Source: Blastococcus litoris (GTDB taxonomy: Bacteria > Actinomycetota > Actinomycetes > Mycobacteriales > Geodermatophilaceae). From it: a stretch of DNA of 64,000 nt. Shown here piece by piece: positions 6,812 through 37,839 of the stretch. Every line of letters starts with the position of its first letter. Positions within the stretch are counted from its first letter, which is position 1. Below the pieces are notes generated by a model. The model had not been told where the DNA came from. It did no database searches and saw only the letters and a program-made list of their open reading frames with translations. A program made the translations under genes and the position numbers. The stretch spans positions 186,001 to 250,000 of the forward strand of contig NZ_QCZF01000004.1 in NCBI RefSeq assembly GCF_003075095.1, read 5' to 3'.

Positions 6812-7044
6812 GAGGCGCCACCTGCGGACGTGGATGCACCGGGGCGGCCACCCGCACGGCGTCGCCCGGGTGCTCGACCGCCTGGACGCCGTGGTCATCG
6901 GCAGCGCGCGGGCACATCGCGGTCGACCGGCACGAGCCGGTCGCGGCGTTCGAGCCGATCGCGGGGGACCACCCCGTCTTCCGCATCCGCCCGCTGCCGG
7001 GGACCGCTTCCTCGGAGGTCAGGCCGGCTCGATCGACAGGGTGA
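6812..7044 (+). pseudogene. Decayed deazaflavin (F420)-dependent reductase-like gene
   Basis: Two pieces of one protein family lie end to end in different frames. The first, from about 6812 to 6908, reads LRTWMHRGGHPHGVARVLDRL, the usual N-terminus of DUF385/F420H2-dependent quinone reductase-like proteins. The second, about 6905 to 7000, reads HIAVDRHEPVAAFEPIAGDHPVFRI, the usual C-terminus. The roughly 80-100 residues between them, which bind the deazaflavin, are missing and the join is out of frame. I infer an internal deletion. It converges on fbiC, whose product makes the F420 chromophore, and overlaps that gene's 3' end by about 25 nt. Confidence 0.65.
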
Positions 7045-11561: not shown

Positions 11562-12410
11562 CTAGACGTCGCGGCGGGAGAAGGACAGCGCGGTCAGCCC
11601 CCAGATCACCGCGATCCACACCGCGGCCCAGACGAGGTAGGCCGGTGCCAGCGGGCCCTCGCTGAGGAACGGGAAGCCGCCCTCGCCGGGGCCCATCTGC
11701 ACCAGGGCGAACGGGTCCTGGAACGCGTTCATCGCGCCGCGCCACAGGCCGTCGGTCGGCAGGATGATCCGCGAGACGGTGCCCACCCGCTCGACGCCCT
11801 CGTTGCCCAGCGCGCCGCCGATCCCGCCGACCACGCCCGCGACCCAGGTGGCCCCGAACAACCCGACCGCGATGATCCCCGAGGCCATCGGGGAGACCAC
11901 GCTGGACAGCAGCAGGGCGAGGGTCAGCAGGACGACGGTCTGCGCGGCCAGCAGGGCGAGGCCGGCGGCCGGGGACGGCGGCCAGTAGCCCACCGTGACG
12001 CGGACGACGACGATCTCGCCCAGCCCCGCGAGGACCACGTAGCCGGCGCCGAAGCCGATCAGCCCGAGCCACTTGCCCAGCAGGACCGACGACCGGCGGA
12101 CCGGGCGCGCGAGGACGGCCAGTGCCTGCCCCGACTCCACCTCGCCGGCGAGCGTGGGCCCGGCGAGGAACGCGGTACCGATCGCCGCGATCAGGCTCAG
12201 CCCGAACATGATCAGGTTGAGCAGCAGCGACGCCACCAGGCGCGCCTCGCCGCTGGTCATCGTGCCCAGGTCGGTGTCGAGGCCGACCAGCTTCGTGAAC
12301 CCCCAGGCCGACAGCGCGAGCAGCACCACGGTCAGCGCGAGCAGCGCCCAGACGACCCGTCGGCGCGCCGCCTCGCGCAGCGTCAGCCCGGCGACGGTCA
12401 GCGCCGTCAT
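11562..12410 (-). CDS. ABC transporter permease (ABC-2 type)
   Basis: A 282-residue membrane protein with six predicted helices. Helix 1 starts at about residue 17 after a short cytoplasmic LREAARRR stretch. The ESGQALAVLARPVRRSSVLLGKWLG segment between helices 2 and 3 is typical of ABC-2 permeases of NosY/CcmB-like efflux systems. It overlaps the upstream ATPase gene by 4 nt and forms its membrane partner. The cargo is unknown; the upstream sigma/anti-sigma pair suggests envelope-stress-controlled export. Confidence 0.85.
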   Translation of the reverse strand: MTALTVAGLTLREAARRRVVWALLALTVVLLALSAWGFTKLVGLDTDLGTMTSGEARLVASLLLNLIMFGLSLIAAIGTAFLAGPTLAGEVESGQALAVLARPVRRSSVLLGKWLGLIGFGAGYVVLAGLGEIVVVRVTVGYWPPSPAAGLALLAAQTVVLLTLALLLSSVVSPMASGIIAVGLFGATWVAGVVGGIGGALGNEGVERVGTVSRIILPTDGLWRGAMNAFQDPFALVQMGPGEGGFPFLSEGPLAPAYLVWAAVWIAVIWGLTALSFSRRDV

Positions 12411-13384
12411 CGGGCTGCCTCCTCGTGCCGCAGGATGCCGAGCAGCCGCTCCTCCAGGCTGATCCGCACCGGCTCGACGGCGTGCACCCGGACGCCCATG
12501 CCGACCAGGTCGCGGACGAGGTCGGGCACCGTGGCGCCGTCGTCCTCGGTGGCGAGCCCCACGGTGAACCAGTCGCCGCTGCGGGCCAGCGAGCCGGCGG
12601 CGCGCAGCCGCTCCTCGACGCGGCCGTCCACCTCGCCCAGCCGCAGGCGGACCTCGTGCTGCCCGAGCAGCTCGGCGAGCGTGCCGGAGGCGGCGACCTT
12701 CCCCTGGTCGAGGATCACCACGCGGTCGCACACCCGCTCCACCTCGCCGATGAGGTGCGAGTTGAGCAGCACGGCGACGCCCCGGGACTTCAGCGAGAGC
12801 ACGAGGTCGCGCACGTCGACCCGGCCGATCGGGTCGAGCGCGCTTGTGGGCTCGTCCAGGACGACGAGCTCCGGACGGGCGACCAGCGCGACCGCCAGGC
12901 CGAGCCGCTGCTGCATGCCCTTGGAGAACCCGCCGACCCGGTCGCCGGACCGCTCCGCGAGGCCGACCAGCGCCAGGCACTCGCGGCGCTCCTCGACCGG
13001 CACGTCGGCGCGGGCGAGCCTGACGTGCAGGTCGAGCACCTCGGTGGGCGTCAGCCAGGGCTGGTAGCGGAACAGCTCGGGCAGGTACCCGACGGCTGCC
13101 CGGGAGCGGGGGTCGGACGAGCGCCGACCGAGCAGCAGCACCTCGCCGGCGTCCGGCCGGACCAGGCCCAGCAGCATCTTGATGACGCTGGTCTTCCCGG
13201 CGCCGTTGGGCCCCAGCAGGCCGAGCACCTCACCGCGGCCGACGGTGAACGAGACGTCGTCCACGGCGGTGCGGCGCCCGTACCGCTTGCGCAGTCCCGA
13301 GCACCACACCGCCGGGGACGGCGGGAGGTCCGCGAGCGCTCCGGAGGTCACCCCGCGGACGGTAGTGGCGTCAGCGGAGGCCAC
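12407..13384 (-). CDS. ABC transporter ATP-binding protein (CcmA/NatA type)
   Basis: A 325-residue ATPase with Walker A GPNGAGKTS, the signature FSKGMQQRLGLA and Walker B LVVLDEPTSALDP, then a C-terminal extension (about 100 residues) common in drug- or copper-exporter ATPases. The ATG at 13384 overlaps the anti-sigma gene by 14 nt; a GTG at 13360 would remove the overlap and either is possible. It is translationally coupled to the permease gene. The substrate cannot be assigned. Confidence 0.9.
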   Translation of the reverse strand: MASADATTVRGVTSGALADLPPSPAVWCSGLRKRYGRRTAVDDVSFTVGRGEVLGLLGPNGAGKTSVIKMLLGLVRPDAGEVLLLGRRSSDPRSRAAVGYLPELFRYQPWLTPTEVLDLHVRLARADVPVEERRECLALVGLAERSGDRVGGFSKGMQQRLGLAVALVARPELVVLDEPTSALDPIGRVDVRDLVLSLKSRGVAVLLNSHLIGEVERVCDRVVILDQGKVAASGTLAELLGQHEVRLRLGEVDGRVEERLRAAGSLARSGDWFTVGLATEDDGATVPDLVRDLVGMGVRVHAVEPVRISLEERLLGILRHEEAAR

Positions 13385-14444: not shown

Positions 14445-14961
14445 GGCGGTTCAGCTCCTCGAGCAGAAGGGATTCGGCGCGGCGGACGGTGGTGCCCACG
14501 CTGCCGGGGGACATGTCGAGCGCGGCCGCGACCTCGGCGTAGCTCAGGCCGCTGTGCCGCAGCACCAGGGCGGCCGCCTGCTTGTGCGGCAGCCGGGCGA
14601 GGGCGGCGCGGACGGTGCTGCGCTCCTCGCGGGTGACGACCAGGTCCGCGACGTCGGGCGCGGGGGTCGCGGGCTCGGCGGCGATCTCCTCCCGGGCGGT
14701 GCGGCGGCGGCCCGACCGGAGCAGGTTCAGGGCGGTGTGGGTCGCGGCGACGGTCAGCCACCCGACCGCCTCGGCCGCCGGGACCGCGGACCGGGCGTAG
14801 GAGAGGAAGACCTCCTGCGCGACGTCCTCGGCCTGGTCGCGGGAGCCGAGGACGCGGGCGGCCACGGCGACGACATGGGCGTAGTGCGCGCGGAAGACGG
14901 CGGCGAGCTCGGGGTTCGCGACGCCGACGGGCGCTCGGTCGGACGCCGGCACGCGAGCCAT
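14428..14961 (-). CDS. ECF-family RNA polymerase sigma factor
   Basis: About 177 residues with regions sigma2 (FRAHYAHVVAVAARVLGSRDQAEDVAQEVFL) and sigma4 (LARLPHKQAAALVLRHSGLSYAEVAAALDMSPGSV). The start at 14961 (MARVPASD) is chosen for a GGGCAGG directly upstream; the frame is open to an ATG at 15039. It heads a four-gene set with its anti-sigma factor and an ABC exporter, so it probably controls this operon. It is divergent from the AfsR-like regulator, with about 180 nt between the starts. Confidence 0.9.
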   Translation of the reverse strand: MARVPASDRAPVGVANPELAAVFRAHYAHVVAVAARVLGSRDQAEDVAQEVFLSYARSAVPAAEAVGWLTVAATHTALNLLRSGRRRTAREEIAAEPATPAPDVADLVVTREERSTVRAALARLPHKQAAALVLRHSGLSYAEVAAALDMSPGSVGTTVRRAESLLLEELNRHASPQ

Positions 14962-15140
14962 CCTGCCCGTCCGGCCCATCACCGCCGCGGGTGACGGCAT
15001 GCCGATCCCTGGCGCACGGGCACGTCCCACGAGGTCCACACCTACTCAGCACCGCGGCACGCCCGGATGTGACACGGCCTCGACCGGGGACGGCGAAACC
15101 CCTCGATCCGGAGGTCCTGGTGCCGCTAGGTTCCGGCGTC
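14962..15140. promoter_or_regulatory. Divergent promoter region between sigma gene and AfsR-like gene
   Basis: These 179 nt separate two divergent regulators and should hold both promoters. I could not assign -35/-10 boxes or direct repeats with confidence. Confidence 0.4.
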
Positions 15141-18011
15141 GTGCGGGACGGGGCGGGCGGGGTGGCGGTGGGCCTGCTCGGCCCGGTGACGGCGTGGCTG
15201 GACGGGGCCCCGGCGCCGCTGGGTGGCCCGAAACCGCGAGCCCTGCTGGCCCGTCTCGCGATCGCCCGCGGCCGGGTGCTGACCGACTCCGCCCTCATCG
15301 AGGACCTCTGGGGCGACGAGCCGCCGCGGTCGGCGCTCACGACCCTCCAGGGCTACGTCGCCGGACTGCGGCGGTCGCTCGAGCCGGGGCGCGGTGCCGC
15401 CGAGGCCGCGGTCCTGGTGCGGCAGGGACCGGGGTACGCCCTCTGCCTGGGTGCGGCGGCGGTCGACGCCGACCGCTTCGCCGACCTGACGGCACGGGCC
15501 ACCGACGACCTGGCGGCCGGCGACGCGGCAGCCGCGGAGCGCGCGGGACTGGAGGCGCTGGGGCTGTGGCGCGGGCCGGCGCTGGCCGGCTGCGGGGACC
15601 GGGAGTTCGCCCTGGCCGCGGCCGCGCGGCTCGACGACCTGCGCGAGGGCCTCCGGGAGACGGTGTGGTCGGCCCAGCTGGCGCTGGGCAGGCACCACGA
15701 GGTCGCGGCCGAGCTGGGCGACTTCACGCGCGAGCACCCGCTGCGGGAGCGCGGGTGGGAGCTGCTCGCGCTCGCCCACTACCGGGCAGGGCGCCAGGCG
15801 GACGCGCTGGCGTCCCTCCGTGCCGCGCGCGACGTCCTCGAGGAGGAGCTCGGTGCCGACCCCGGACCCGGGTTGACGTCCCTCTCCCGCGCCATCCTCC
15901 GGCAGGACCCTGCCCTCGACCTCCCCGCGCCCGCGGACAGGCGACCCGCCCGTTCCGCCGTCGTCCCGGAGCCGGAGCCGCCGGCCCCTCGCCGGCCGGG
16001 TCCCGGCGCGGCGGCGCTCCCGGTCCCGACCACACCGTTCCTCGGCCGCGGGGACGACGTCGACGCCGTCGGCCGCCTGCTCGACCAGCACCGCCTGGTG
16101 ACGCTGGCCGCCGCCGGTGGCATGGGCAAGACCCGGCTCGCCCTCGCGGTGGCCGGCGCCCGGGACCGCGCCGACGGTCCCTGGTTCGTCGACCTCGCGC
16201 CCGTCCAGGACGGCGACCGGGTGGTCGACGTCATGGCCACGACGCTGGGGTCGACGGGAGCGGGCACGCCCGCGGAACTGGCCGCCCTGCTGGGCGAGCG
16301 GCACGTCCTGCTGGTCCTCGACAACTGCGAGCAGGTGATCGCGGCCGTGGCCGCCGTGGTGACGGACGTGCTCGCACGGTGCCCGGGCGTCACGGTGCTG
16401 GCCACCAGCCGCGAGCCGCTGCTGGTGCCCGGCGAACGGGTCCACTGGCTCGGCCCGCTGCCCCGGGAGGAGGCGGTGACGCTGTTCCGGGAGCGCGTCG
16501 CCGCCTTCCGCCCGGACTGGCGACCGGACGCCGAGGAGGAATCGGCCGTCTCCGGGCTCTGCGACCAGCTCGACCGCATGCCGCTCGCCCTGGAGCTGGC
16601 CGCCGCCCAGTGCCGGCTGCTGTCGGTGCACCAGGTCGCGGCACTGGTGGGCGACCGGATGGCGCTGCGGTGGACGGGGAACCGGGGCGGAGGACGGCAC
16701 GCGACCATGCGGACCGCGATCGCCTGGTCGGTCGAGCAGCTCGAGCCCGAGGAGCGGGCGGTGTTCGCCGAGCTCGGGGTGTTCGCGGGCGGGTTCGACC
16801 TCGACGCGGCGGCGGCGGTGACCGGCCGGCCCGACGTGCTGCTCACCCTCGGCGGGCTGGTCGACAAGTCGCTCGTGGTGGTCGAGGGCGGCCACCCCGC
16901 CCGGTACCGGGTCCTCGAGGTGCTCCGGCAGTACGCCGCCGAGCTGCGCGACCCCGAGCAGGACCGGGTGCTGCGCGACCGCCACGTGGCCTGGGTGCGG
17001 TCCTTCACCGATCACGCCGACCGGGCGCTGCGTGGTTCGGACTCCGCGGCGTGGATGCGCCGTCTGGCGACGGAGTCGGCGAACGTGCGCTCCGCCCTGG
17101 ACCACTGCGCCGGGGACCCGGCCACGGCCCTCGAGATCGCCGCCGGGATGTACTGGTTCTGGTTCCGCCGCGGACCGGTCGTCGAGGGGCTGCAGCGGCT
17201 CTCGGGGGCGGTGGCCGCGATCGGCGCGACCCCCGTCCCGCACAGCACCCTCGTGCGCGCGGCCGTGGGGACCGCGCTGCTCAGCTACCTGCGCGGGGAC
17301 CTGGCCGGCCTCCTGGGCGCCCTGGAGCGCGTGGGCGTCCTCGGGGCGTCCGCCGTCGAGCCGGCCGACCGGGCCTACGCCTTCGCCACCCTGGCCTTCT
17401 TCGAGGCGTCGGCGGGATCGACCGGCCCCGCCCGCGAGCACGCCGGCATCGCACTGGCGGTGGCCGACGAGCTGGACCTCGACCACATCCGCGCCGAGGC
17501 GCTCATGTGCCTGGGGACGGCGTCCTTCCGCGAGGGCGACCACACCGCGGCGGCGGAGCAGCTGCAGGCGTGCCTGCGGGCGGCGCAGCGGGGCGGCTAC
17601 ACCTGGTGCGCGGTGTCCGCCGCGTGGCTGCTGGCGAAGTCGCGCATCGCCGCCGGGGAGCCGCTCCCCGGGATCGCGGTGGAGCTGATCGCCGCCGCCG
17701 ACGCGTGCGTCCTGGACGAGGACGTCACCTCGTGGCTGGTGGTGCTCGCGACCCTCGCCTACGTCGCCTTCCGCGGGGGGCTCGTGGACGACGCGCTCCT
17801 GCTGTCCGGGGTCGTCGCCCGGTACGGCGAGGAGGTGGGCTTCGTGCCCGAGGCGATGGACGCCGTCGAGCTGGCCCGCTACGGGGCGGAGATCCGCGAG
17901 GCCGTGCCCGCCGACGACCACGCCGACGGGCTCCGCCGCGGCCGCGCCCTCCCGGACCGGGAGGTGGAGGCCCTGGTGCGGGCCCTCCCGGCGGCTCTCG
18001 CGCGCGGGTAG
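15141..18011 (+). CDS. AfsR/SARP-family transcriptional regulator with NB-ARC ATPase
   Basis: About 956 residues in three parts. Residues 1-95 are an OmpR-like winged helix (LLGPVTAWLDG, then VLTDSALIEDLWG). Residues 100-250 are the bacterial transcriptional activation domain (REHPLRERGWELLALAHYRAGRQADAL). From about residue 300 comes an NB-ARC/STAND ATPase with Walker A AAGGMGKTRLALA and Walker B LLVLDNCEQV. TPR-like helices fill the C-terminus. SARP regulators usually activate neighbouring secondary-metabolite genes, and the next genes, on the opposite strand, are the RiPP cluster. The GTG at 15141 is chosen because it fits the family N-terminus. Confidence 0.88.
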   Translation: MRDGAGGVAVGLLGPVTAWLDGAPAPLGGPKPRALLARLAIARGRVLTDSALIEDLWGDEPPRSALTTLQGYVAGLRRSLEPGRGAAEAAVLVRQGPGYALCLGAAAVDADRFADLTARATDDLAAGDAAAAERAGLEALGLWRGPALAGCGDREFALAAAARLDDLREGLRETVWSAQLALGRHHEVAAELGDFTREHPLRERGWELLALAHYRAGRQADALASLRAARDVLEEELGADPGPGLTSLSRAILRQDPALDLPAPADRRPARSAVVPEPEPPAPRRPGPGAAALPVPTTPFLGRGDDVDAVGRLLDQHRLVTLAAAGGMGKTRLALAVAGARDRADGPWFVDLAPVQDGDRVVDVMATTLGSTGAGTPAELAALLGERHVLLVLDNCEQVIAAVAAVVTDVLARCPGVTVLATSREPLLVPGERVHWLGPLPREEAVTLFRERVAAFRPDWRPDAEEESAVSGLCDQLDRMPLALELAAAQCRLLSVHQVAALVGDRMALRWTGNRGGGRHATMRTAIAWSVEQLEPEERAVFAELGVFAGGFDLDAAAAVTGRPDVLLTLGGLVDKSLVVVEGGHPARYRVLEVLRQYAAELRDPEQDRVLRDRHVAWVRSFTDHADRALRGSDSAAWMRRLATESANVRSALDHCAGDPATALEIAAGMYWFWFRRGPVVEGLQRLSGAVAAIGATPVPHSTLVRAAVGTALLSYLRGDLAGLLGALERVGVLGASAVEPADRAYAFATLAFFEASAGSTGPAREHAGIALAVADELDLDHIRAEALMCLGTASFREGDHTAAAEQLQACLRAAQRGGYTWCAVSAAWLLAKSRIAAGEPLPGIAVELIAAADACVLDEDVTSWLVVLATLAYVAFRGGLVDDALLLSGVVARYGEEVGFVPEAMDAVELARYGAEIREAVPADDHADGLRRGRALPDREVEALVRALPAALARG

Positions 18012-18023
18012 CGACCGAGGCGG

Positions 18024-20267
18024 TCAGCCGTCCTGGTGCGCCACGAGTGCGGCGTACCTGCCGCCCAGCGCCAGCAGTTCCGGGTGCGTCCCCTGCTCGA
18101 CGACGCGGCCGCCGTCGAGCACCAGGATCCGGTCGGCGCCGCGGACGGTGCTCAGCCGGTGGGCGATCACGATCCGGGTCTGCCGGAGCCCGGCGATGTT
18201 GGCGGCCACCACGGCCTCGGTGGCGGTGTCCAGGGCGCTCGTGGCCTCGTCGAGCAGGAGCACGCGCGGCCGCCCCAGCAGCGCCCGTGCCAGCGCGACC
18301 CGCTGGCGCTGGCCGCCGGAGAGACCCGTCCCCTCGCGGAGGACCGTGTCGTAGCCCATCGGCATCGCCGCCACCTCGTCGTGCAGGGCCGCCAGCCGGG
18401 CGGCAGCCTCGACGTCGGCCCGGCTCGCATTCGGCCGTCCCAGGGCGATGTTGTCGGCGATCGTCCCGGTGAACAGCACGCAGTCCTGGCTGACGACCCC
18501 GAGTTGGCGCCGCAGGCCGGGCAGGGCCACCTCCCGGGCACGGACACCGTCGAAGAGCACCTCGCCCTCGGTCGGCTCGTGCAGACCCAGCAGGACGCGG
18601 GCGAGGGTGGACTTGCCCGAGCCCGAGGGGCCGACGAGTGCCACCGTGCTGCCCGCGGGGACGTCGACGTCGACGTCGCGGACCACCCACGGGGAGCGCT
18701 GGTCGTAGCGGAAGCCGACACCCCGGACGGTGAGCCCGCCGCTGAGCGGCGGCGCCTCGGGCAGCTCCGGGTCGTCCTGCTCCGGCTGGGCCGCGAGGAC
18801 GTCCCCGAGCCGGCGGAGGTGGGCCGCTCCGGCCTGCAGCCGCGCGGCGCTGCCGAGGAGCGAGCCGATCGGGACGAGGGCGGTGACCGCCAGGGTCGAC
18901 AGGGCCAGGGCCGACCCCAGGGACAGGTCGCCGGTCACCGTCGCGTGCACACCGACCCACATCAGCACGCCCGGGCCGACCAGCCGCAGCGCCCCCAGGG
19001 CGGCGTCGACCGAGGTCTGGAGCGCCGCGCTGCTCGCGGAGTCGGCCAGCGCGACGTCGAAGTGCCGCCGCCACGCGCCCACCAGCGCGGGCTCGCTGCC
19101 GCCGGCCTTCACCGTCTCCATCCCCGAGACCGCCTCCAGGAGCAGCCCCTCCGCGGCGGCCGAGGTGGCGAGCTCCCGCTCGGCGAGGTCGCGGATCCGG
19201 CGGCGCGGCACCAGCACGACGGCGGCCTGCAGCGCGGCCAGCACGAGCAGCGCCGCGCCGAGCCGGAGGTCGGCCCACAGGACCGCGACCAGGTACACCG
19301 CGGCCATCGGGGCGTCGATCACCGCCGCGACCACCTGACCGCTGACCAGCTCGCGGAGGCTGGACAGGCCGTTGACCCGGGACACCACGTCCGCGGTCCC
19401 GCGCCGGGTGAACCAGGAGTACGGCAGCGCGAACAGGCGGGTGACGACGTCGGGGGTGAGCGACGCGTCGATCCGGCGGCGCAGGGCGACCAGGACCCTG
19501 GCCCGGAGCAGCGCGACCGCCGTCCACGCGCAGGTCACCGCCGCGAGCAGCCAGCCGAGCACGGCCAGCAGGCCCGTGTCGCCGTCGGGGACGACCCGGT
19601 CCACGAGCAGGGCGGAGAACAGCGGGACGGCGGCGCCGATGCCCTGCAGCAGCAGCGAGGCGACGACGGCGCCGGCCAGCGGGAGCCGGCCCGCGCGCAG
19701 CGCCTGCGCGGCCAGCGGCCGGCGCCACGCGGTCTGCTGGGCCGGGATCGGCGTCACGGGCCGGTCGGACGGTGCGGTGAAGGTCAGGACGACCCCGGTG
19801 GCGCCGGCCGCGAACTCCTCGGCGGGGAGGACGCGACGTCCGCGCGCCGGGTCGTGCACGACCACCCCGCGCCGGGTGGTGCCCGTGACGACGACGAAGT
19901 GGGACCCCGCCCAGTGGACGACGAGCGGGGCGGGAGCCGTCCGCGCCGGGGACAGCAGCTCGACCAGCGTCGCCGGGTCGATGCGGAAGCCGCGGGCCGT
20001 GAACCCGAGCGCCCGGCCCGCGTCGAGGAGCGCAGCGGCCGACAGCCCGTCGCGACCCACGTCGAGAACCGCGGCGACCTCGGCCGCACCCACCCGGACC
20101 CCCGCGTGCCCGAGCACCATGGCCAGGCAGGCGGCGCCGCAGTCGGCGGTGCCCTGCTGCGGGACGAACGGGACGCGCCGGCCACGTCGCGGGCCGGCGG
20201 CCCGCGGGACGCCAGCGTCCGCCGCCGTGCGGGTCTCCTGACCCGTGCCCGCCGTGGACACGGTCAT
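18024..20267 (-). CDS. Peptidase C39-containing ABC transporter (RiPP leader protease and exporter)
   Basis: This 747-residue PCAT protein cleaves double-glycine leaders and exports the mature peptide. The N-terminal C39 peptidase is intact: Cys43 in QQGTADCGAACL, His123 in GSHFVVV and Asp139 in VVHDPARG. Six transmembrane helices lie at about residues 175-430. The ATPase domain has GPSGSGKSTLARVL, LSGGQRQRVALARALL and LLLDEATSALD. The ATG at 20267-20265 overlaps the stop of the PpiC-like gene by 4 nt. It is the last gene of the RiPP operon and converges with the AfsR-like gene, 12 nt away. The precursor at 22438-22596 has a matching double-glycine leader. Confidence 0.95.
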   Translation of the reverse strand: MTVSTAGTGQETRTAADAGVPRAAGPRRGRRVPFVPQQGTADCGAACLAMVLGHAGVRVGAAEVAAVLDVGRDGLSAAALLDAGRALGFTARGFRIDPATLVELLSPARTAPAPLVVHWAGSHFVVVTGTTRRGVVVHDPARGRRVLPAEEFAAGATGVVLTFTAPSDRPVTPIPAQQTAWRRPLAAQALRAGRLPLAGAVVASLLLQGIGAAVPLFSALLVDRVVPDGDTGLLAVLGWLLAAVTCAWTAVALLRARVLVALRRRIDASLTPDVVTRLFALPYSWFTRRGTADVVSRVNGLSSLRELVSGQVVAAVIDAPMAAVYLVAVLWADLRLGAALLVLAALQAAVVLVPRRRIRDLAERELATSAAAEGLLLEAVSGMETVKAGGSEPALVGAWRRHFDVALADSASSAALQTSVDAALGALRLVGPGVLMWVGVHATVTGDLSLGSALALSTLAVTALVPIGSLLGSAARLQAGAAHLRRLGDVLAAQPEQDDPELPEAPPLSGGLTVRGVGFRYDQRSPWVVRDVDVDVPAGSTVALVGPSGSGKSTLARVLLGLHEPTEGEVLFDGVRAREVALPGLRRQLGVVSQDCVLFTGTIADNIALGRPNASRADVEAAARLAALHDEVAAMPMGYDTVLREGTGLSGGQRQRVALARALLGRPRVLLLDEATSALDTATEAVVAANIAGLRQTRIVIAHRLSTVRGADRILVLDGGRVVEQGTHPELLALGGRYAALVAHQDG

Positions 20268-21319
20268 GCGACGGCCGCCGTGCCGGTGGCCGCGTCGGTG
20301 GACGCGGTGTCGCCCCAGCCCCAGCGGACGGACGCGCTCCGGCGCCGGTCGGCGAGCCAGGCGGCGAACAGCGCGTCCCGCGCCTCCCGCCGCGCCGCCG
20401 CCGGCGACGCCTCGAGCACCTCCGTGACCTCGACGACCACCGCCCCGTCCGGCGCGGGGGCGCACCAGACGAGACCGGGGGCGAGCGCGCCCGGCGCGCC
20501 GGGCAGGTCGGCAGCGGCCACCTCGCCGGTCGTGACCGTCAGCGCCGTCCCGGCAGCCAGCTCGGCGGCCGCGGCAGCCACCAGCGAGCCGCTCCGGGCG
20601 GCGGCGGCCAGCCGCTGGGCGAGCGCGGGGTGGGCCACCGTCACCTCGGTCCGGCGCACCCGGCCGCCCGCACGGGGGTGCTCGGCGAGCCAGGCGTCGA
20701 CGCCGGGGGCCGTGACCCGGTCGCGCAGGCCGGCCAGCTCGGCCTCCCACCGGGCCATGTCCTCGAGGCCCTGGGCGGTCAGGCCGCGGTCGCCGAGCCA
20801 GCGGACGGTGTCCTCGGCGGTGAGCAGCCCGCGGGCGCGCCGGAACGCGTCGACGGCCGCCTGCAGGTCGGCCGGGCCGAGCTCGACGGGGTCCTCGGCC
20901 AGCACCCGCCGGACGAGGCAGGCGTTGACGAGCCGGTCGAGCAGGGCCGTCTCCTGCCACAGGACGTCCAGCAGCGCGACGCCGTCCTCGACGCTCAGGG
21001 GCACGCCGTCGACGGTCAGGAGCACCGACTCCTCGACGCGCTGCGCGCCGCGCATGACCCACGGGACGGTGGAGGGAGGCGTCCAGGAGAGGGAGACCGC
21101 ACCGCCGTCGGCGCCGGTGAGCAGCAGGGCCCGGGCCACCGACCCATCGAGGGACTCGCGCTGGTGGAGGAGGCGCACGCGCCGGCCGGGGTGGGCGGCC
21201 CGCAGCGCGCGCAGCTCGCCGGTCTCGTCGGCGCGGTCGGGGCCCGCGGCGTCCAGCCGCAGGAGCGCGGCCAGCGCGGCGTCGAGCATGCCGGCCTCGG
21301 GCAGGGGCGGGAGCGTCAT
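20264..21319 (-). CDS. PpiC/SurA-like putative peptide maturation protein
   Basis: A 351-residue protein without obvious enzyme motifs. The middle part (about residues 120-205: LVNACLVRRVLAEDPVELGP, then FRRARGLLTAEDTVRWLGDRGL) resembles the helical chaperone part of PpiC/SurA foldases, and the C-terminus ends in a PpiC-like portion. This matches the uncharacterised PpiC-related maturation proteins found in predicted peptide-modification clusters. It is coupled by 4-nt overlaps to the ATP-grasp gene upstream and the transporter gene downstream. I infer it binds or presents the precursor. No signal peptide is seen, so it probably acts in the cytoplasm. Confidence 0.7.
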   Translation of the reverse strand: MTLPPLPEAGMLDAALAALLRLDAAGPDRADETGELRALRAAHPGRRVRLLHQRESLDGSVARALLLTGADGGAVSLSWTPPSTVPWVMRGAQRVEESVLLTVDGVPLSVEDGVALLDVLWQETALLDRLVNACLVRRVLAEDPVELGPADLQAAVDAFRRARGLLTAEDTVRWLGDRGLTAQGLEDMARWEAELAGLRDRVTAPGVDAWLAEHPRAGGRVRRTEVTVAHPALAQRLAAAARSGSLVAAAAAELAAGTALTVTTGEVAAADLPGAPGALAPGLVWCAPAPDGAVVVEVTEVLEASPAAARREARDALFAAWLADRRRSASVRWGWGDTASTDAATGTAAVA

Positions 21320-22344
21320 CGCAGGGCTCCGATCGGCGGGAGGTCGTGGGCGGGTGCCGGCGCGGCCAGTCGTTGCAGCTCGTCGGCGATCGCCGCGGAG
21401 ATGGGCAGGCCGGTGGCGTCTTCGATCCACAGCCACTGCCCGTTGGGGTTGATCTCGAGGAAGACGTAGCGGCGGTCGGGCGTGAGCACCAGGTCGATCG
21501 CGCCGTAGCGCAGCCCCAGCTCGGACACCAGGCGCAGGCACCGGTCCCGCACCGGTCCGGGCAGGTCGTGGACGGCGTGCCGCGTGGTCGCGCCGTCGTA
21601 GCACCGCCAGTCCAGGCGGGTGTGGTTGGACTGCTGGCTGTGGATCTCCGCGGCGAAGACCTGCCCGCCGACCACGGTCACCCGCAGCTCGACGTGCTTG
21701 GGCACGTAGGCCTGCACGATGACGGGGCACAGGACGGCCGAGGCGGCGGCGGTCACGTCGTGGACGGTGACCGGTTCGGCCTTGCGGGTCAGGGCGCCGC
21801 CGTCGTCCTCCCGGAGCCAGGGGCGCTCCAGGGGCTTGCTGATCACCGCTCCCTGGTGCTCGTCCCAGAAGTCGAGCAGGGCGTCGGGATCCGTGGTCAC
21901 CAGCGTGGGCGGCAGCTCGAAGCCGAGCATCCCGGCCAGCCGGAGCTGGCCCAGCTTCTGGCCGGCGAGGCGGATCGTGTCCCGGGTCGCCGGGAGCGTG
22001 GGGCGGTCGATGCCGGCCCACACGTCGTCGGCCAGCCGGGCGAGCTCCGCGGTGGCGAGCGCTGCGACGGGGCCGGTCAGGGCGGGGTCGGACCCCACGG
22101 CCCCGGGCTTGCGCACCCACACGGCGGTGACGTCGGCGAGCTCCACCCGCTCCTCGCCACGGTGCAGGACGTGCGCGAACCGGCCCTGCGCGTCGCAGCC
22201 GGCGCTGAGACGGGCCCGCACGGGCAGGTCGGCCGGGTCGAAGACGGTGACCCGCACGCCCCGGTCGGTCAGCATCGTGCAGACGCGGCGGGCGTGCTGG
22301 TCGCCGGGGGCGGTGAGGACCAGGACGTGGGGCTGGGCGGGCAC
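21316..22344 (-). CDS. ATP-grasp ribosomal peptide maturase (MvdD/graspetide-ligase-like)
   Basis: A 342-residue RimK-like ATP-grasp ligase. Visible features are an N-terminal VLVLTAPGDQHARRV pre-ATP-grasp segment, GAVISKPL, VIVQAYVPKHVELRVTVVG, the maturase-specific HSQQSNHTRLDWR, and the metal-binding signature FLEINPNGQWLWIE. Enzymes of this group join Ser/Thr or Lys side chains of a precursor to Asp/Glu carboxylates using ATP, giving omega-ester or omega-amide rings. The start is GTG with GGAGGA upstream. It lies 93 nt downstream of the 52-residue precursor gene, so the peptide substrate is very probably that product. Confidence 0.9.
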   Translation of the reverse strand: MPAQPHVLVLTAPGDQHARRVCTMLTDRGVRVTVFDPADLPVRARLSAGCDAQGRFAHVLHRGEERVELADVTAVWVRKPGAVGSDPALTGPVAALATAELARLADDVWAGIDRPTLPATRDTIRLAGQKLGQLRLAGMLGFELPPTLVTTDPDALLDFWDEHQGAVISKPLERPWLREDDGGALTRKAEPVTVHDVTAAASAVLCPVIVQAYVPKHVELRVTVVGGQVFAAEIHSQQSNHTRLDWRCYDGATTRHAVHDLPGPVRDRCLRLVSELGLRYGAIDLVLTPDRRYVFLEINPNGQWLWIEDATGLPISAAIADELQRLAAPAPAHDLPPIGALR

Positions 22345-22390
22345 GGGGTCCTCCGGTCTCGGGACGGTCGGTCGGGGGGAAGGCTGCGGG

Positions 22391-22424
22391 GAGGGGGCGC
22401 GGCCGGGAAGGGTCGCGCCCCCTC
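22391..22424 (-). terminator. Attenuator-like hairpin between RiPP precursor and maturase genes
   Basis: An 11-bp perfect stem, GAGGGGGCGCG (22391-22401) with CGCGCCCCCTC (22414-22424), has a 12-nt loop. It lies 13 nt past the precursor stop and 47 nt before the ATP-grasp start. Such partial terminators often keep precursor mRNA more abundant than that of the modifying enzymes. Confidence 0.6.
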
Positions 22425-22437
22425 GCCCCGGGGGTGA

Positions 22438-22596
22438 TCAGAAGTCGGCGTCGGTGCCGCACCAGCCCCCGGCGATGTCGATGACCTGGCTCGAGGTGCC
22501 CTGGTTGGCGCGGCGGCCACCCACGACCTCGGTGAGGGTCTCGACCTCGAGCTCCTCGCCGGCGGCGGCGATGTCGGCGATCACGGTGCTGTTCAT
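22438..22596 (-). CDS. RiPP precursor peptide with double-glycine leader
   Basis: A 52-residue peptide starting MNSTVIADIAAAGEELEVET. It has an excellent ribosome site (AAGGAG, 7 nt before the ATG). Residues 14-27 form a canonical C39 leader: Leu16 at -12, Leu21 at -7, Val24 at -4 and Gly26-Gly27 at -2/-1 (VVGG). Cleavage would release a 25-residue core, residues 28-52. Possible ester donors are Thr34, Ser35, Ser36 and Thr48; acceptors are Asp40, Asp49 and Asp51. The core also has Trp45 and Cys46 and ends in TDADF. A second Gly-Gly is at 43-44. Position directly upstream of an ATP-grasp maturase, a PpiC-like protein and a C39 exporter makes this the substrate. The core does not resemble a graspetide class known to me. 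Confidence 0.88.
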   Translation of the reverse strand: MNSTVIADIAAAGEELEVETLTEVVGGRRANQGTSSQVIDIAGGWCGTDADF

Positions 22597-22616
22597 GGCG
22601 GTTCTCCTTGGTGTCG

Positions 22617-22634
22617 TGTCGGCTTGTTCCGACA
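22617..22634 (-). promoter_or_regulatory. Small inverted repeat upstream of the RiPP precursor
   Basis: TGTCGG (22617-22622) and CCGACA (22629-22634) form a perfect 6-bp inverted repeat with a 6-nt spacer, 20 nt upstream of the precursor start codon. It could be an operator or a leader stem-loop. The 139-nt gap to the flavin reductase gene should also hold the RiPP promoter, which I cannot place. Confidence 0.35.
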
Positions 22635-22735
22635 GGGAGAACCGTGCCCGCCACCGCTGGAGGCCTGGTGGGAGTTCGCTGGGGACGCGTCCCCCGGCGC
22701 TGGGAAGCTGCTGGAGGGGGCGACGTCCGCGCAGG

Positions 22736-23248
22736 TCAGGCGCGCGCGGCGGGATTCCCGGACTCGTCGACGTACCGGCCCCGCAGGCGCAGCAGGGGCC
22801 GCCCCAGCGGGTTCAGCGCGACCACGGCGTCCACGGCGAGCAGCGCCACGACGTGGTCGCCGGCCCCCACCAGCTGCTGCAGGCGGCAGTCGAGCGTGGT
22901 GAGGCCGTCGTCGAGCACGATCGCCCCGCTGCCGGGGGCGCGGGACCACGGCACCGACTCCAGCAGGTGGCGGGCGCTCGGGCGGCCGGCCGACGAGAAC
23001 CGGGAGGCCACGATCGCGTGCTGGGCGGCCAGCACGGTCAGCCCGCACGAGCCGACCTCCTCGAGCACCTCGGCGGGGTAGCCCGACGCCGTCAGGCCCA
23101 CGGCGACCAGCGCCGGGTCGGCCGACACGCTCATCACCGAGGTGACCGTCGTCCCGACGTCGTCGATGCCGTCGCGCACGGTCAGCAAGCAGACCCCTGC
23201 GGCGTACTGCCCCAGGGCGGCGGCGAAGTCCGAGCGGTCGACCGGCAT
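22736..23248 (-). CDS. Flavin reductase-like (FMN-binding split barrel) protein
   Basis: A 170-residue protein. It starts in the typical way for NAD(P)H:flavin reductases (DRSDFAAALGQYAAGVCLLTV), with the FMN-loop TTVTSVMSVSADPALVAVGL and the C-terminal DHVVALLAVDAVVALNPLGRPLL. Such enzymes supply reduced FMN to monooxygenases or act as small FMN oxidoreductases. It is divergent from the FAD oxidoreductase gene, 35 nt apart, and upstream of the RiPP operon on the same strand. A role in the RiPP pathway is possible but not indicated by the sequence. Confidence 0.82.
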   Translation of the reverse strand: MPVDRSDFAAALGQYAAGVCLLTVRDGIDDVGTTVTSVMSVSADPALVAVGLTASGYPAEVLEEVGSCGLTVLAAQHAIVASRFSSAGRPSARHLLESVPWSRAPGSGAIVLDDGLTTLDCRLQQLVGAGDHVVALLAVDAVVALNPLGRPLLRLRGRYVDESGNPAARA

Positions 23249-23283
23249 GGCGGCCAGTCGACCACACCGGGGAGGATGCCGAG

Positions 23284-24702
23284 GTGAGCGCAGCGGAGAA
23301 GACCTATGACGTCGTCGTCCTCGGAGCCGGATCGACGGGGGAGAACGTCGCCGACATCGCCGTCCGGGGCGGGCTGACCGCCGTCCTGGTCGAGAACGAG
23401 CTGGTCGGCGGGGAGTGCTCCTACTGGGCCTGCATGCCCAGCAAGGCGCTGCTGCGCGGCACCGAGGTGCTCGCCGAGGCGCGTGCGGTGGACGGCGCGA
23501 AGCAGGCGGTGACCGGAGAGCAGGACGTCGCCGCGACCCTCGCCCGCCGGGACGGCTTCACCGCGCACTGGGACGACTCCGGCCAGGTGCAGTGGGTCGA
23601 GGGCGCCGGCATCGACCTGGTCCGGGGCACGGGCCGGCTCACCGGCGAGCGCACGGTGGTCGTCACCGGGGCCGACGGCACCGAGACGCGGCTGACCGCG
23701 CGGCACGCCGTCGCCGTCTGCACGGGATCGGTGTCGGCGATGCCGCCGATCGAGGGGCTGGCCGACGTCGGTGCGTGGTCGCCCCGCGAGGCGACGAGCG
23801 CGAAGGAGGCGCCGGGCCGACTGCTCATCCTCGGCGGCGGCTACGTCGGGTGCGAGATGGCGACGGCGTGGCAGGCCCTGGGCGCGCAGGTGACGCTCAT
23901 CCAGCGCGACCACCGGCTGCTGCCCAACGCCGAGCCGGTGGCCGGCGAGGCGGTCGAGAAGTCGCTGCGGGACCGGGGCGTCGACGTCCGGCTGGAGACC
24001 GACGTCATGGCCGCCCGTCGGGAGGACGGCGAGGTGGTGCTCAGCTGCACCGGCGGGGAGGTCCGCGGCGACGAGGTGCTGGTGGCGGTCGGCCGGGCGG
24101 CCCGCACCCGCGACCTGGGGCTCGACGCCGTGGGCCTGGAGCCCGGCGCCTACCTCGACGTCGACGACACGCTGCAGGTGCGCGGCCTCCCGTGGCTCTA
24201 CGGCGTCGGTGACGTGAACGGGCGGCGGCAGCTGACCCACATGGGCAAGTACCAGGCCCGGCAGGCCGGCGCGGCGATCGTCGCGCGCGCGAACGGGCAG
24301 GACGCCGACACCTCCGACTGGTCGCCGCACGTGGCCACCGCCGACGTGCACGCCACGCCCTCGGTCGTCTTCACCATCCCGCAGGTCGCGAGCGTGGGCC
24401 GGACCGCGGCGGAGGCGGAGGAGGCGGGCATCGCCCACAGGGTGGTGCAGATCCCGCTCGCCGTCGCCGGTTCGCGGCTGTTCGCCGACGACTACGAGGG
24501 CACGGCGGTCGCCGTCGTCGACACCGACCGGGAGGTGCTGATCGGGGTGACCTTCGTCGGTCCCGCCGTCGCCGAGCTCGTCATGGCCGCGACCATCGCC
24601 GTCGTCGGCGAGGTGCCGATCGGCCGGCTCTGGCACGCCGTCCCCGCCTACCCGACGGTCAGCGAGATCTTCCTGCGGTTGCTGGAGGCCTACCGCGGCT
24701 GA
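23284..24702 (+). CDS. FAD-dependent disulfide oxidoreductase-like protein (Lpd/Mer family)
   Basis: A 472-residue two-dinucleotide-fold protein. It has FAD motif VVLGAGSTGENVA, the redox-active pair Cys45/Cys50 in GGECSYWACMPSK, NAD(P) motif LLILGGGYVGCEMA, the second FAD motif LYGVGDVNG, and a C-terminal dimerisation domain. In dihydrolipoamide and glutathione reductases a His-Pro-Thr motif near the C-terminus provides the catalytic base; here the aligned segment is PAYPTVSE, with Tyr in place of His. Similar Tyr/Phe forms are common in uncharacterised actinobacterial members and in mercuric reductases. I would not call it dihydrolipoamide dehydrogenase. The GTG follows GAGGATGCCGAG. Confidence 0.85.
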   Translation: MSAAEKTYDVVVLGAGSTGENVADIAVRGGLTAVLVENELVGGECSYWACMPSKALLRGTEVLAEARAVDGAKQAVTGEQDVAATLARRDGFTAHWDDSGQVQWVEGAGIDLVRGTGRLTGERTVVVTGADGTETRLTARHAVAVCTGSVSAMPPIEGLADVGAWSPREATSAKEAPGRLLILGGGYVGCEMATAWQALGAQVTLIQRDHRLLPNAEPVAGEAVEKSLRDRGVDVRLETDVMAARREDGEVVLSCTGGEVRGDEVLVAVGRAARTRDLGLDAVGLEPGAYLDVDDTLQVRGLPWLYGVGDVNGRRQLTHMGKYQARQAGAAIVARANGQDADTSDWSPHVATADVHATPSVVFTIPQVASVGRTAAEAEEAGIAHRVVQIPLAVAGSRLFADDYEGTAVAVVDTDREVLIGVTFVGPAVAELVMAATIAVVGEVPIGRLWHAVPAYPTVSEIFLRLLEAYRG

Positions 24703-24727: not shown

Positions 24728-25705
24728 ATGAGCCAGCCGACGGACCCCCAGGTCCTCGAGGTCGTCGACCGCTACCGGACCTGCGAGTTCGCGACCCTCA
24801 CGAGGTCCGGCGTCCCGATCGCCTGGCCGACGGCGGCGCTCCTCCGCGACGACGGCACGTTCCTCGTCACCACGTCGATCGCGCTGCCGCAGAAGGCCTA
24901 CAACATCCGCCGGGACGACCGCGTCGCGATGCTGTTCAGCGAACCCACCGCCAGCGGGCTCGTGGGCGCGCCGCAGGTCCTGGTGCAGGGCCGGGCCGGC
25001 TGCCCGGACGAGATCGTCACGGACGTGTCCGGCGACGTCGAGTACTGGCGGCGGCTGCACGAGCGGCAGCCGTTCAACGCCCTCTACTCCCGCAACGCGC
25101 TCACCCGCCGGTTCTTCGACTGGTACTACATGCGGCTGCACATCACGGTCACCCCGACGTCGTGGACCACCCGGCCGCCGCTCCCCGCGGGCCGGCCCCC
25201 GGCGGCGGGCTCCCCGGACGGTCTCGCCGGCCGGGCGCTCGCGCAGCTCGCGGGCTACCCCAGCGCCGTCCTCGCGACCCGCACCGACGACGGGATGCCG
25301 AGCCTGCGGCGGGTGCACGTGACCGGGCCCGGGGCGGCCGGCCGGCTGCGGCTCGACGTCCCGCCGGACGAGCAGCTGCGCGAGGGACCGGCGAGCCTGC
25401 TCGCGCACGGGCACGACGAGCAGCTGTGGTCGCTGCGCAGCGTCGTCGTCACCGGTGAGCTGATCCCGGCCGACGTCTGGACCTTCCGGCCCGAGCGGAT
25501 CGTCGGCGCCGGCGATGCGAGCCCGGTCGGGATGCTGCGCGAGCTCGGCCGGCTGCGCCGGACGGCGAAGGGCTACCTGGAGAAGCGCTCGCTGCCGCGC
25601 CCCTCGATCGCCTGGAGCAGCGTGCGCGCACTGGGGGACGACGTCAGGGCAGGGGGAACGGGGCGTCGTCCGGAGCCGGGAGCGGTCCGTCCGTCGTCGC
25701 GGTGA
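24728..25705 (+). CDS. Pyridoxamine 5'-phosphate oxidase-like protein, two split barrels
   Basis: A 325-residue protein with two PNPOx-like split-barrel halves. The first (residues 10-140) has CEFATLTRSGVPIAWPTAALL and KAYNIRRDDRVAMLF, the usual FMN- or F420-binding layout. The second (from about residue 165) has GYPSAVLATRTDDGMPSLRRVHV. It follows the FAD oxidoreductase gene by 25 nt in the same direction and may share its transcript. Its last 62 nt overlap the 3' end of the opposite transglutaminase gene, so the last 20 residues are low-complexity. The cofactor and substrate are unknown. Confidence 0.75.
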   Translation: MSQPTDPQVLEVVDRYRTCEFATLTRSGVPIAWPTAALLRDDGTFLVTTSIALPQKAYNIRRDDRVAMLFSEPTASGLVGAPQVLVQGRAGCPDEIVTDVSGDVEYWRRLHERQPFNALYSRNALTRRFFDWYYMRLHITVTPTSWTTRPPLPAGRPPAAGSPDGLAGRALAQLAGYPSAVLATRTDDGMPSLRRVHVTGPGAAGRLRLDVPPDEQLREGPASLLAHGHDEQLWSLRSVVVTGELIPADVWTFRPERIVGAGDASPVGMLRELGRLRRTAKGYLEKRSLPRPSIAWSSVRALGDDVRAGGTGRRPEPGAVRPSSR

Positions 25706-26429
25706 CCGTCATCGTCTCGAAGCGCGCGATCCGCCCGAACAGCGAGAGGAAGGCCGTGTCGGCGGCGTCCCGCCCCGAGCAGATCCGCACCAGCGAGCTC
25801 GTGGGCGCCAGCCGGGTGGGGTCGACCACCGACCAGACCCCGTCCACGTCGGCCTCGACGACGGCGTGGAAGTCCATCGGCGAGAGCCCCGGCGCGTAGA
25901 CCGCCACGAGCCTGGCCGGGATCTCCAGCGCGCGCAGCAGCGTGATGGTCAGGTGCGCGTAGTCCCGGCAGACACCCTGGCCGGCGAGGAGCGTGTCGAC
26001 GGCGGTGTCGACCGGCCGGCTGGAGCCGGACGTGTAGACCAGCCGGCGGTGGACCCAGGCCGCCACCGCGGGGACGAGCTCGGCCGCCGGGAGGTGCGGG
26101 TCGAACTCGGCGGTCGCGAACCCCTCCAGCTGGTCGGACGGGCAGTACCGGCTGGGGCGCACCGCCTCGGCCCACTCCGCCGGCGTGACCTTCCGCGGCG
26201 GGCCGCCCAGCTCGGCCGACGCCGAGTACGTGACCGTCGTGCCGCCCTCCTGCAGCTGCAGCCGGTGCACGCGCGCGCCGTCGACCTCGATCTCCTCGGG
26301 CTCGATCGCGACCCCGCCGGAGACCACGGTCAGCTGCTCGGCGACCGGCGCCGCCACGGCGATCTGCAGCAGCGCGGTCGCCGGCTCCGGAGAGGACATG
26401 GTGAGCGTCGCGGCGACGTCGGTGCGCAT
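25644..26429 (-). CDS. Transglutaminase-like cysteine peptidase family protein
   Basis: About 261 residues. The C-terminal half holds a transglutaminase core with its triad: Cys in GQGVCRDYAHL, His in MDFHAVVEA and Asp in VVDPTRLAP. The N-terminal half is a beta-rich transglut_N-like domain. There is no signal peptide, so it is cytoplasmic. Start at 26429 is preferred, because GAGG lies 9 nt upstream; an ATG three codons earlier is too close to it. Substrate unknown; many actinobacterial homologues are of unknown function. Confidence 0.83.
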   Translation of the reverse strand: MRTDVAATLTMSSPEPATALLQIAVAAPVAEQLTVVSGGVAIEPEEIEVDGARVHRLQLQEGGTTVTYSASAELGGPPRKVTPAEWAEAVRPSRYCPSDQLEGFATAEFDPHLPAAELVPAVAAWVHRRLVYTSGSSRPVDTAVDTLLAGQGVCRDYAHLTITLLRALEIPARLVAVYAPGLSPMDFHAVVEADVDGVWSVVDPTRLAPTSSLVRICSGRDAADTAFLSLFGRIARFETMTVTATTDGPLPAPDDAPFPLP

Positions 26430-26525
26430 GCGGCACATCCTCGCCCACCTGCGGTTTCCTCCGCATGACGGTGATCACGCCGGACCCGACGGCGCGCGGG
26501 CGCCCCGTCGTGCTGGAGTGGAGCC

Positions 26526-37621: not shown

Positions 37622-37766
37622 TGTCACTCCAGACGATCCACCGTTGGCTCGTTGGTCCCCCGTGACCTGGCTGGGGGCGTCTACCCCGGCCAGAGGCGCG
37701 CGATGCATGAACCTGCGACGCGCTATCACGGATAACGACGACGGGATCGTCGGGTGACGGTCGAGG

Positions 37767-37839
37767 CGCGCCCGGCAGGGATCGAACCTGCGACCAAGTG
37801 CTTAGAAGGCACCTGCTCTATCCGCTGAGCTACGGGCGC
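37767..37839 (-). tRNA. tRNA-Arg (anticodon UCU)
   Basis: A complete 73-nt cloverleaf on the minus strand. The acceptor stem is GCGCCCG with CGGGCGC, the D arm has AGCTCAGCGGATAGAGC, the anticodon loop CTTCTAA gives UCU, and the T arm has GGTTCGATCC. The discriminator is G and CCA is not encoded. It reads the rare AGA codon of this GC-rich genome. Confidence 0.95.

What the first reader, a model, noticed from the sequence alone, without database searches (positions are those of the whole stretch)
18024..22596. Compact RiPP cluster: 52-residue double-glycine precursor, ATP-grasp ligase, PpiC-like protein and C39 exporter
Seen in sequence: four genes in one direction. The last three overlap by 4 nt each, and all conserved catalytic residues are present in the ligase and the C39 peptidase. 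The precursor is too short for standard gene callers and carries a canonical leader (Leu -12, Leu -7, Val -4, Gly-Gly). Known: ATP-grasp maturases of the MvdD type make omega-ester or omega-amide rings, and C39 ABC transporters cut double-glycine leaders. Inference: a graspetide-like secreted peptide. Pairing a graspetide-type ligase with a PpiC-like maturation protein and a C39 exporter is, to my knowledge, not a characterised combination.
Basis: partly seen in the sequence, partly recalled or inferred. Interest (0 to 1): 0.88.

Follow-up and report, generated by a model that had tools for sequence, protein, structure and literature searches.

The report
Rosaritide-type graspetide gene cluster
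Four adjacent genes very probably make and export a small ring-closed peptide of a type characterised in 2026 (rosaritide), here in a version whose ring-forming residues differ from the known peptide.

Summary
In detail: on the minus strand lie a 52-aa double-glycine precursor, an ATP-grasp ligase, a PpiC-related protein and a C39 exporter, the last three overlapping by 4 nt each. The claim that this combination is uncharacterised does not hold. It is the gene content and order of the rosaritide (mir) cluster, graspetide group 21 (PMC13097080, March 2026), where the PpiC-type protein is a required partner of the ligase. NCBIfam already models precursor (TIGR04497) and partner (TIGR04500); both are met above cut-off. 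TIGR04500 exceeds its cut-off in 77 of 337 genomes drawn from one related family, but in the own family only in the window's genome (1 of 112). What I add: (1) cluster plus a SARP regulator fill a block of about 7.8 kb missing at the same site in 8 of 8 congeners examined; (2) the core keeps Ser8/Ser9 and the Asp-x-Asp-Phe end but lacks Thr11 (Val) and one C-terminal Asp, as in Streptosporangium subroseum, so a two-ring variant is plausible but untested; (3) a hairpin follows the precursor gene here and in 46 of 69 relatives (loop limit loosened). New member of a known kind.

The parts
22438..22596 (-). Precursor peptide, 52 aa; leader 22516-22596 (27 aa, ends Gly-Gly), core 22441-22515 (25 aa)
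   Evidence: TIGR04497 GRASP_targ_2, 54.9 bits, cut-off 32; core pattern shared with L003, L139-L141 and L144-L147
22604..22609 (-). Shine-Dalgarno-like AAGGAG, 7 nt before the precursor ATG
   Evidence: sequence
22388..22428 (-). Hairpin with an 11-bp perfect stem between precursor and ligase genes
   Evidence: longest stem p = 0.003 against shuffles with loops up to 20 nt; not significant with loops up to 10 nt; folding energy z only -1.19
21316..22344 (-). ATP-grasp graspetide synthetase, 342 aa, GTG start
   Evidence: best NCBIfam TIGR04187 (236.6 bits, below cut-off 350); PF21068 29.8 bits, cut-off 27; only one match in the own genome
20264..21319 (-). PpiC-related partner protein (MirC-like), 351 aa
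   Evidence: TIGR04500 256.2 bits, cut-off 180; SurA-like by profile and fold
18024..20267 (-). C39 peptidase-containing ABC exporter, 747 aa
   Evidence: PF03412, PF00664, PF00005; best NCBIfam TIGR03796 (539.6 bits, below cut-off 853.3)
14991..18011 (+). SARP/AfsR-type regulator (true start uncertain), tail to tail with the exporter gene, in the same inserted block
   Evidence: PF03704, PF00486; no match in the 8 congener loci
14900..22740 (.). Block absent at the same site in 8 of 8 congeners examined (approximate limits)
   Evidence: nucleotide matches over 150 nt stop at 14873-14926 and resume at 22733-22765

Best explanation
This is a rosaritide-type (group 21-like) graspetide cluster. 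The PpiC-like protein, more likely a SurA-like chaperone than a working prolyl isomerase, forms a complex with the ATP-grasp synthetase and is needed for its activity. The ligase uses ATP to activate the C-terminal Asp side chains (D22, D24 of the core) and joins them as esters to Ser8/Ser9 (perhaps Thr7), making two or possibly three macrolactones. The C39 domain of the exporter then cuts after Gly-Gly and exports the 25-residue product. The adjacent SARP regulator probably switches the cluster on, and the hairpin after the precursor gene probably lets more precursor than enzyme be made. Shown: the genes, families, order, core pattern, the block missing in congeners, the stem. Inferred by orthology with rosaritide: partner dependence, macrolactones, cleavage. 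Inferred only: ring number, SARP control, hairpin role, acquisition by transfer. The biological activity of the product is unknown; rosaritide lacking its first three core residues showed no growth inhibition in the published panel.
For: Precursor and PpiC-like protein exceed NCBIfam cut-offs for TIGR04497 and TIGR04500. Same gene order A-B-C-D in L139, L140, L141, L144, L145 and L146, loci of the family of G315; the core of L146 agrees with each of the 14 core residues that PMC13097080 section 8 names for MirA (compared by eye). The window core shares SSxxID and the DxDF end with them. Ligase 45-56% and exporter 39-52% identical to L003, L139, L146, L147, L192 and L213, the PpiC-like protein 38-50% over 166-189 residues. 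Requirement for both MirB and MirC shown in PMC13097080. The best Foldseek hit of the modelled PpiC-like protein is 3rgc (Cj1289), the nearest structure reported for MirC as well.
Against: The ligase scores 236.6 bits on TIGR04187, below the cut-off of 350; but L139, L080, L147 and L003 score 236-252 too. The core lacks Thr11 and one of the three C-terminal Asp, so rosaritide's connectivity cannot be copied directly. In the tree the window ligase groups with 33 ligases from Streptosporangium-type and G1399-family loci, most with other core types, rather than with the rosaritide-type loci of the G315 family. The PpiC model is modest (pLDDT 70.2, pTM 0.55; TM 0.27/0.34 to 3rgc). In 26 of 100 related neighbourhoods no leader-like ORF was recognised upstream of the ligase, among them 2 of the 9 of the G315 family (L142, L143).
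Confidence: 0.88

Rival explanations
1. Two-ring variant (a sub-case of the best explanation): one donor (Thr11) and one acceptor were lost, leaving Ser8/Ser9 esterified to the two remaining C-terminal Asp (mass loss 36 Da).
For: The 7 rosaritide-type cores found in the G315 family have SSxT with three C-terminal Asp; the window and S. subroseum (L003, same place as L261) have SSxV with two.
Against: Only two distinct sequences show the loss, so it may be one event. Thr7 and Asp13 could supply a third pair. In rosaritide Thr11 pairs with Asp24, Ser9 with Asp26 and Ser8 with Asp22, so the residues lost are not each other's partners.
Confidence: 0.5
2. Three-ring variant (also a sub-case) in which Thr7 and Asp13, or another pair, replace the lost donor and acceptor (mass loss 54 Da).
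For: Thr7, Ser8, Ser9 and Asp13, Asp22, Asp24 are available in the core.
Against: In rosaritide, Ala replacement of the internal Asp residues did not stop triple dehydration (PMC13097080 section 8).
Confidence: 0.33
3. Inactive or decaying cluster: genes present, no mature product.
For: Within the family only this genome of 112 has a TIGR04500 match, as for a recent, possibly unselected acquisition.
Against: All four frames are open, the 4-nt overlaps and Shine-Dalgarno are intact, and the ATP-grasp and C39 domains are complete by profile.
Confidence: 0.08

Closest known systems
Rosaritide (mir) cluster of Micromonospora rosaria, graspetide group 21 (PMC13097080)
   Same: Same four gene types: precursor, TIGR04187-type ligase, TIGR04500 PpiC-type partner, C39 transporter; the order A-B-C-D is that of loci with matching cores; SSxxID and DxDF in the core
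   Different: Ligase 45-47% identical to L146/L139, which carry rosaritide-type cores (MirB itself was not held); Thr11 replaced by Val, two instead of three C-terminal Asp, no Pro and one Cys in the core; adjacent SARP regulator
Streptosporangium subroseum locus L003 (no paper found pairing graspetide with Streptosporangium)
   Same: SSxVID...TDADF core and the same four genes; ligase 53%, exporter 49% identical; a SARP-like match about 1.4 kb beyond the exporter
   Different: Longer core (29 residues) with other internal residues; SARP match in the same direction as the cluster, not opposed
Microviridin-type ligases MvdC/MvdD and solved ATP-grasp ligases 5ig8, 5ig9, 7m4s, 7mgv
   Same: Same ATP-grasp ligase superfamily
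   Different: Far below their equivalog cut-offs (MvdD 193.8 of 475, MvdC 188.9 of 425); no PpiC-type partner there (recalled)

Membership tests
Graspetide group 21 (rosaritide type) | TIGR04500 PpiC-type protein next to the ligase | tested here: met
   256.2 bits, cut-off 180
Graspetide group 21 (rosaritide type) | TIGR04187-type graspetide synthetase | tested here: inconclusive
   best NCBIfam hit but 236.6 bits against cut-off 350; L139, L080 and L147, with rosaritide-type cores, are likewise below it
Graspetide group 21 (rosaritide type) | Double-glycine precursor next to the ligase | tested here: met
   TIGR04497 54.9 bits, cut-off 32
Graspetide group 21 (rosaritide type) | C39 peptidase-containing transporter | tested here: met
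   PF03412 E 1.3e-27 with ABC domains; TIGR03796, named for MirD, is the best hit but below its cut-off (539.6 of 853.3)
Rosaritide itself | Three donors S8, S9, T11 and three acceptors D22, D24, D26 | tested here: not met
   S8 and S9 kept, T11 is Val, two of three C-terminal Asp kept. The published groups are drawn from a ligase similarity network (passages), so this bears on rosaritide rather than on the group
Graspetide group 21 (rosaritide type) | Place in the published ligase similarity network at its alignment score | not testable with these tools
   network and its sequences not held
Graspetides | Ester or amide links made by the ATP-grasp ligase | not testable with these tools
   needs mass spectrometry
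PpiC/parvulin prolyl isomerase | Recognisable parvulin domain | tested here: inconclusive
   Rotamase_2 13.7 bits, cut-off 27, E 0.11 for the window protein; 6 of 12 aligned members match at E up to 1, best 1.8e-4, and Nitroreductase does as well (6 of 12, best 1e-4); the profile matches SurA (2pv3, E 5.7e-7)

The most novel reading that the evidence does not exclude
A rosaritide-type system in which one donor and one acceptor were lost, giving a two-ring product and showing that the partner-dependent ligase tolerates a changed ring number; it travels as a block with its own SARP regulator and belongs to a wide group of TIGR04500/ATP-grasp/C39 systems with one kind of leader and very diverse cores.
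Probability: 0.4. Interest if true: 0.45.

Novelty: new member of a known kind. Interest (0 to 1): 0.3.

Why it matters
It extends partner-dependent graspetides of the rosaritide type beyond the one characterised example, gives a natural test of how the ligase-partner complex sets ring number, and points to a large set of related clusters with a common kind of leader and diverse cores that could be mined for new peptides.

Tried and rejected
Rejected: an uncharacterised combination (PMC13097080 characterises it). Rejected: the flavin reductase upstream (22736-23248) as a cluster member; it is present in 8 of 8 congeners examined at 75-86% identity, and in each its nearest neighbour on that side, among the window genes searched, is the sigma factor gene. 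Not supported: insertion by a tRNA-linked element; the only tRNA found in the window is at 37765-37839, and the repeat search over 14800-23300 showed only weak GC-rich matches (20 of 30 direct families and 25 of 41 inverted pairs were displayed).

Led nowhere: pattern searches for a precursor in L142 and L143 found none. The promoter/terminator scan of 22300-22800 found nothing. Searches pairing graspetide with Streptosporangium, graspetide with SARP, and an omega-ester peptide with peptidylprolyl isomerase found no papers. The 2021 graspetide survey was not held. Composition did not mark the block as foreign (GC3 0.958-0.974 for SARP, exporter, partner, ligase and precursor; five flanking genes 0.936-0.982).

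Hairpin test: the first version allowed loops up to 10 nt and gave 33 of 69 loci at p<=0.05 against 2 of 69 controls, with the window not significant (p 0.807). Having seen that the loop in the window is longer I allowed 20 nt: 46 of 69 against 4 of 69, window p 0.003. That change was made after the first result. The 69 are the 74 loci with a leader-like ORF less five places fetched twice, which I left out by name.
Full report
Observation. The precursor matches NCBIfam TIGR04497 above cut-off and the PpiC-like protein matches TIGR04500 above cut-off; the best match of the ligase is TIGR04187, below cut-off; the exporter carries a C39 peptidase and ABC domains. The last three genes are joined by two ATGA overlaps. 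The own genome holds one match to this ligase.

What it is. A literature search led to PMC13097080 (ACS Chem Biol, March 2026; abstract and passages seen, sections 8 and 9 read). It describes rosaritide from group 21: MirA precursor, MirB (TIGR04187), MirC (TIGR04500) and MirD (a peptidase-containing transporter, TIGR03796). Coexpression of MirA with MirB or with MirC alone gave no mass shift; all three gave up to -54 Da, three macrolactones S8-D22, S9-D26 and T11-D24. MirB and MirC copurify as an active complex. PMC8939145 (passages) lists TIGR04500 among 18 families associated with ATP-grasp loci (40 occurrences). So the combination is known. In the library two papers hold the term TIGR04500, these two; one holds rosaritide and none holds TIGR04497.

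Relatives. A scan of genome contigs with the ligase gave 77 loci, 11 of them 49-53% identical over most of its length, named Streptosporangium, Microtetraspora, Planobispora, Planomonospora or Planotetraspora (a few others show higher identity over short ends only). TIGR04500 over cut-off: 1 of 112 genomes in the own family, the window's; 2 of 396 in a draw from the phylum; 8 of 354 in the family of G315; 3 of 397 in a draw from the order; 77 of 337 in a draw from the family of G1399. TIGR04497 over cut-off: 8 of 394 in a draw from the class. The draws share some genomes. I examined 100 neighbourhoods: 11 of the 77 loci, the 9, and 80 that I chose from the listed matches, whose list was itself cut. 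All were chosen for the PpiC-like gene or the ligase. The window's ligase matched in 93 of 100, its PpiC-like protein in 100 and its exporter in 73 within the stretch held. A leader-like ORF lay upstream of the ligase in 74 of 100, with 2 further hits elsewhere, and 0 hits among 1835 ORFs of the 8 congener loci. The leader model was seeded with 17 leaders, the window's and others from these same loci, so the count leans upward; for the 7 loci without a ligase match the position was estimated from the PpiC-like gene.

Core. A pattern search of the 100 loci and the window found rosaritide-type cores in L139, L140, L141, L144, L145, L146 and L147 (7 of the 9 loci of the G315 family), in L003 with its duplicate L261, and in the window. 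The seven have SSxT and three C-terminal Asp; the window and L003 have SSxV and two. The pattern did not itself require Thr or a third Asp. L146 agrees with each of the 14 residues that the paper names for MirA (by eye; the paper numbers the two internal Asp once as 13/14 and once as 12/13). L142 and L143 had no recognisable precursor. The loss of one donor and one acceptor may be one event, so it is a hypothesis, not a tested covariation. L192 and L213 have a related but different ending, RDRDDFTGA.

Ligase. Eleven ligases aligned share D245-W246-R247 (window numbering) along with K170, E219, D284, E297 and N299 (which of these bind ATP or metal is recalled). Among 89 ligase rows the first match to D-[FWYILMV]-R was DWR 61, DLR 10, DYR 9, DFR 7, DVR 2; the paper calls the motif DFR. 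The next node, of 47 rows (SH-aLRT 100), adds rosaritide-type loci (40 of the 47 names were printed). Distances are long (1.29 or more), and a quick tree is weaker evidence than a careful one.

PpiC-like protein. The window protein and 11 relatives gave an AlphaFold model of modest quality (pLDDT 70.2, pTM 0.55). The profile finds SurA (2pv3, E 5.7e-7) and the best Foldseek hit is Cj1289, 3rgc (E 1.5e-5, TM 0.27/0.34, rmsd 13.3), the closest structure reported for MirC as well; PrsA foldases follow. Rotamase_2 is not significant for the window protein (E 0.11). A chaperone role is therefore more likely than prolyl isomerisation; the core also has no proline.

Genomic block. In 8 of 8 congeners examined (8 of the 15 same-genus genomes listed) the flavin reductase and the sigma factor gene lie close together: about 200 nt between the aligned flanks in six, about 1.1-1.3 kb in two, and no match to precursor, ligase, partner or SARP was found in the 17.5-18 kb read (tblastn E 1e-8). 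The exporter query does match there, at 31.6-34.5% identity over its ATPase part, but on the neighbouring ABC gene (12407-13384 in the window), not on an exporter of this kind. The window carries about 7.8 kb between these flanks. Acquisition by transfer is the likelier reading; loss in the congeners is not excluded. SARP-like matches occur near the cluster in 5 of 108 loci searched (the 100 plus the 8 congener sites, which have none), two of the five being the same S. subroseum place, so SARP linkage is not general.

Hairpin. The 93 nt between precursor and ligase fold into a stem with 11 perfect pairs. Folding energy is not exceptional for such GC-rich DNA (z -1.19), but the stem length is (p 0.003). 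Over 69 distinct loci 46 reach p<=0.05 against 4 of 69 control stretches inside the ligase gene (after loosening the loop limit, where the counts were 33 and 2 and the window failed). Of the seven rosaritide-type loci of the G315 family only three reach it (L144, L145, L147); L139, L140, L141 and L146 do not (p 0.135, 0.075, 0.555, 1.0). A role in giving more precursor than enzyme transcript is inference.

Verdict. An intact rosaritide-type graspetide cluster, probably acquired with its SARP regulator, with a core that predicts two or three ester rings. New member of a known kind.

Noticed in passing
L005, L006, L007, L009, L011, L069 (about 70-900 nt upstream of the ligase): Two to four tandem precursor ORFs per cluster in these Planobispora/Planomonospora loci, with similar leaders and cores ending in [DNS]PPG.C. 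Such cores lack the rosaritide donor/acceptor pattern; the one tried did not match TIGR04497.
   Followed up: partly
L252-L259, L262, L264, L265; L234, L236, L240, L244, L246, L248; L260, L263, L267: Other core types behind similar leaders: AKSQVIVIHGGHTHTSGDSN-like, RPMERCYHTNGTEGRPSDGWVSDY-like, and cores ending in VPYEWWL, beside a TIGR04500 gene and a ligase.
   Followed up: partly
L012, ORF ending at 8408 (+); L243, ORF ending near 2316 (-): Leader-like precursor ORFs not upstream of the ligase: in L012 after the PpiC-like gene, in L243 about 3.9 kb downstream of the ligase start.
   Followed up: no
L142, L143: Clusters of the G315 family with ligase, partner and exporter but no recognisable precursor in 9 kb.
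   Followed up: partly
window 25644-26438 (-): Transglutaminase-core protein (PF01841), also matched in 7 of 8 congener loci near the flavin reductase, so not part of the cluster.
   Followed up: partly
window 7019-9625 (-): Radical SAM protein with a CofH-type C-terminal region; by recall this looks like FbiC of F420 biosynthesis.
   Followed up: no
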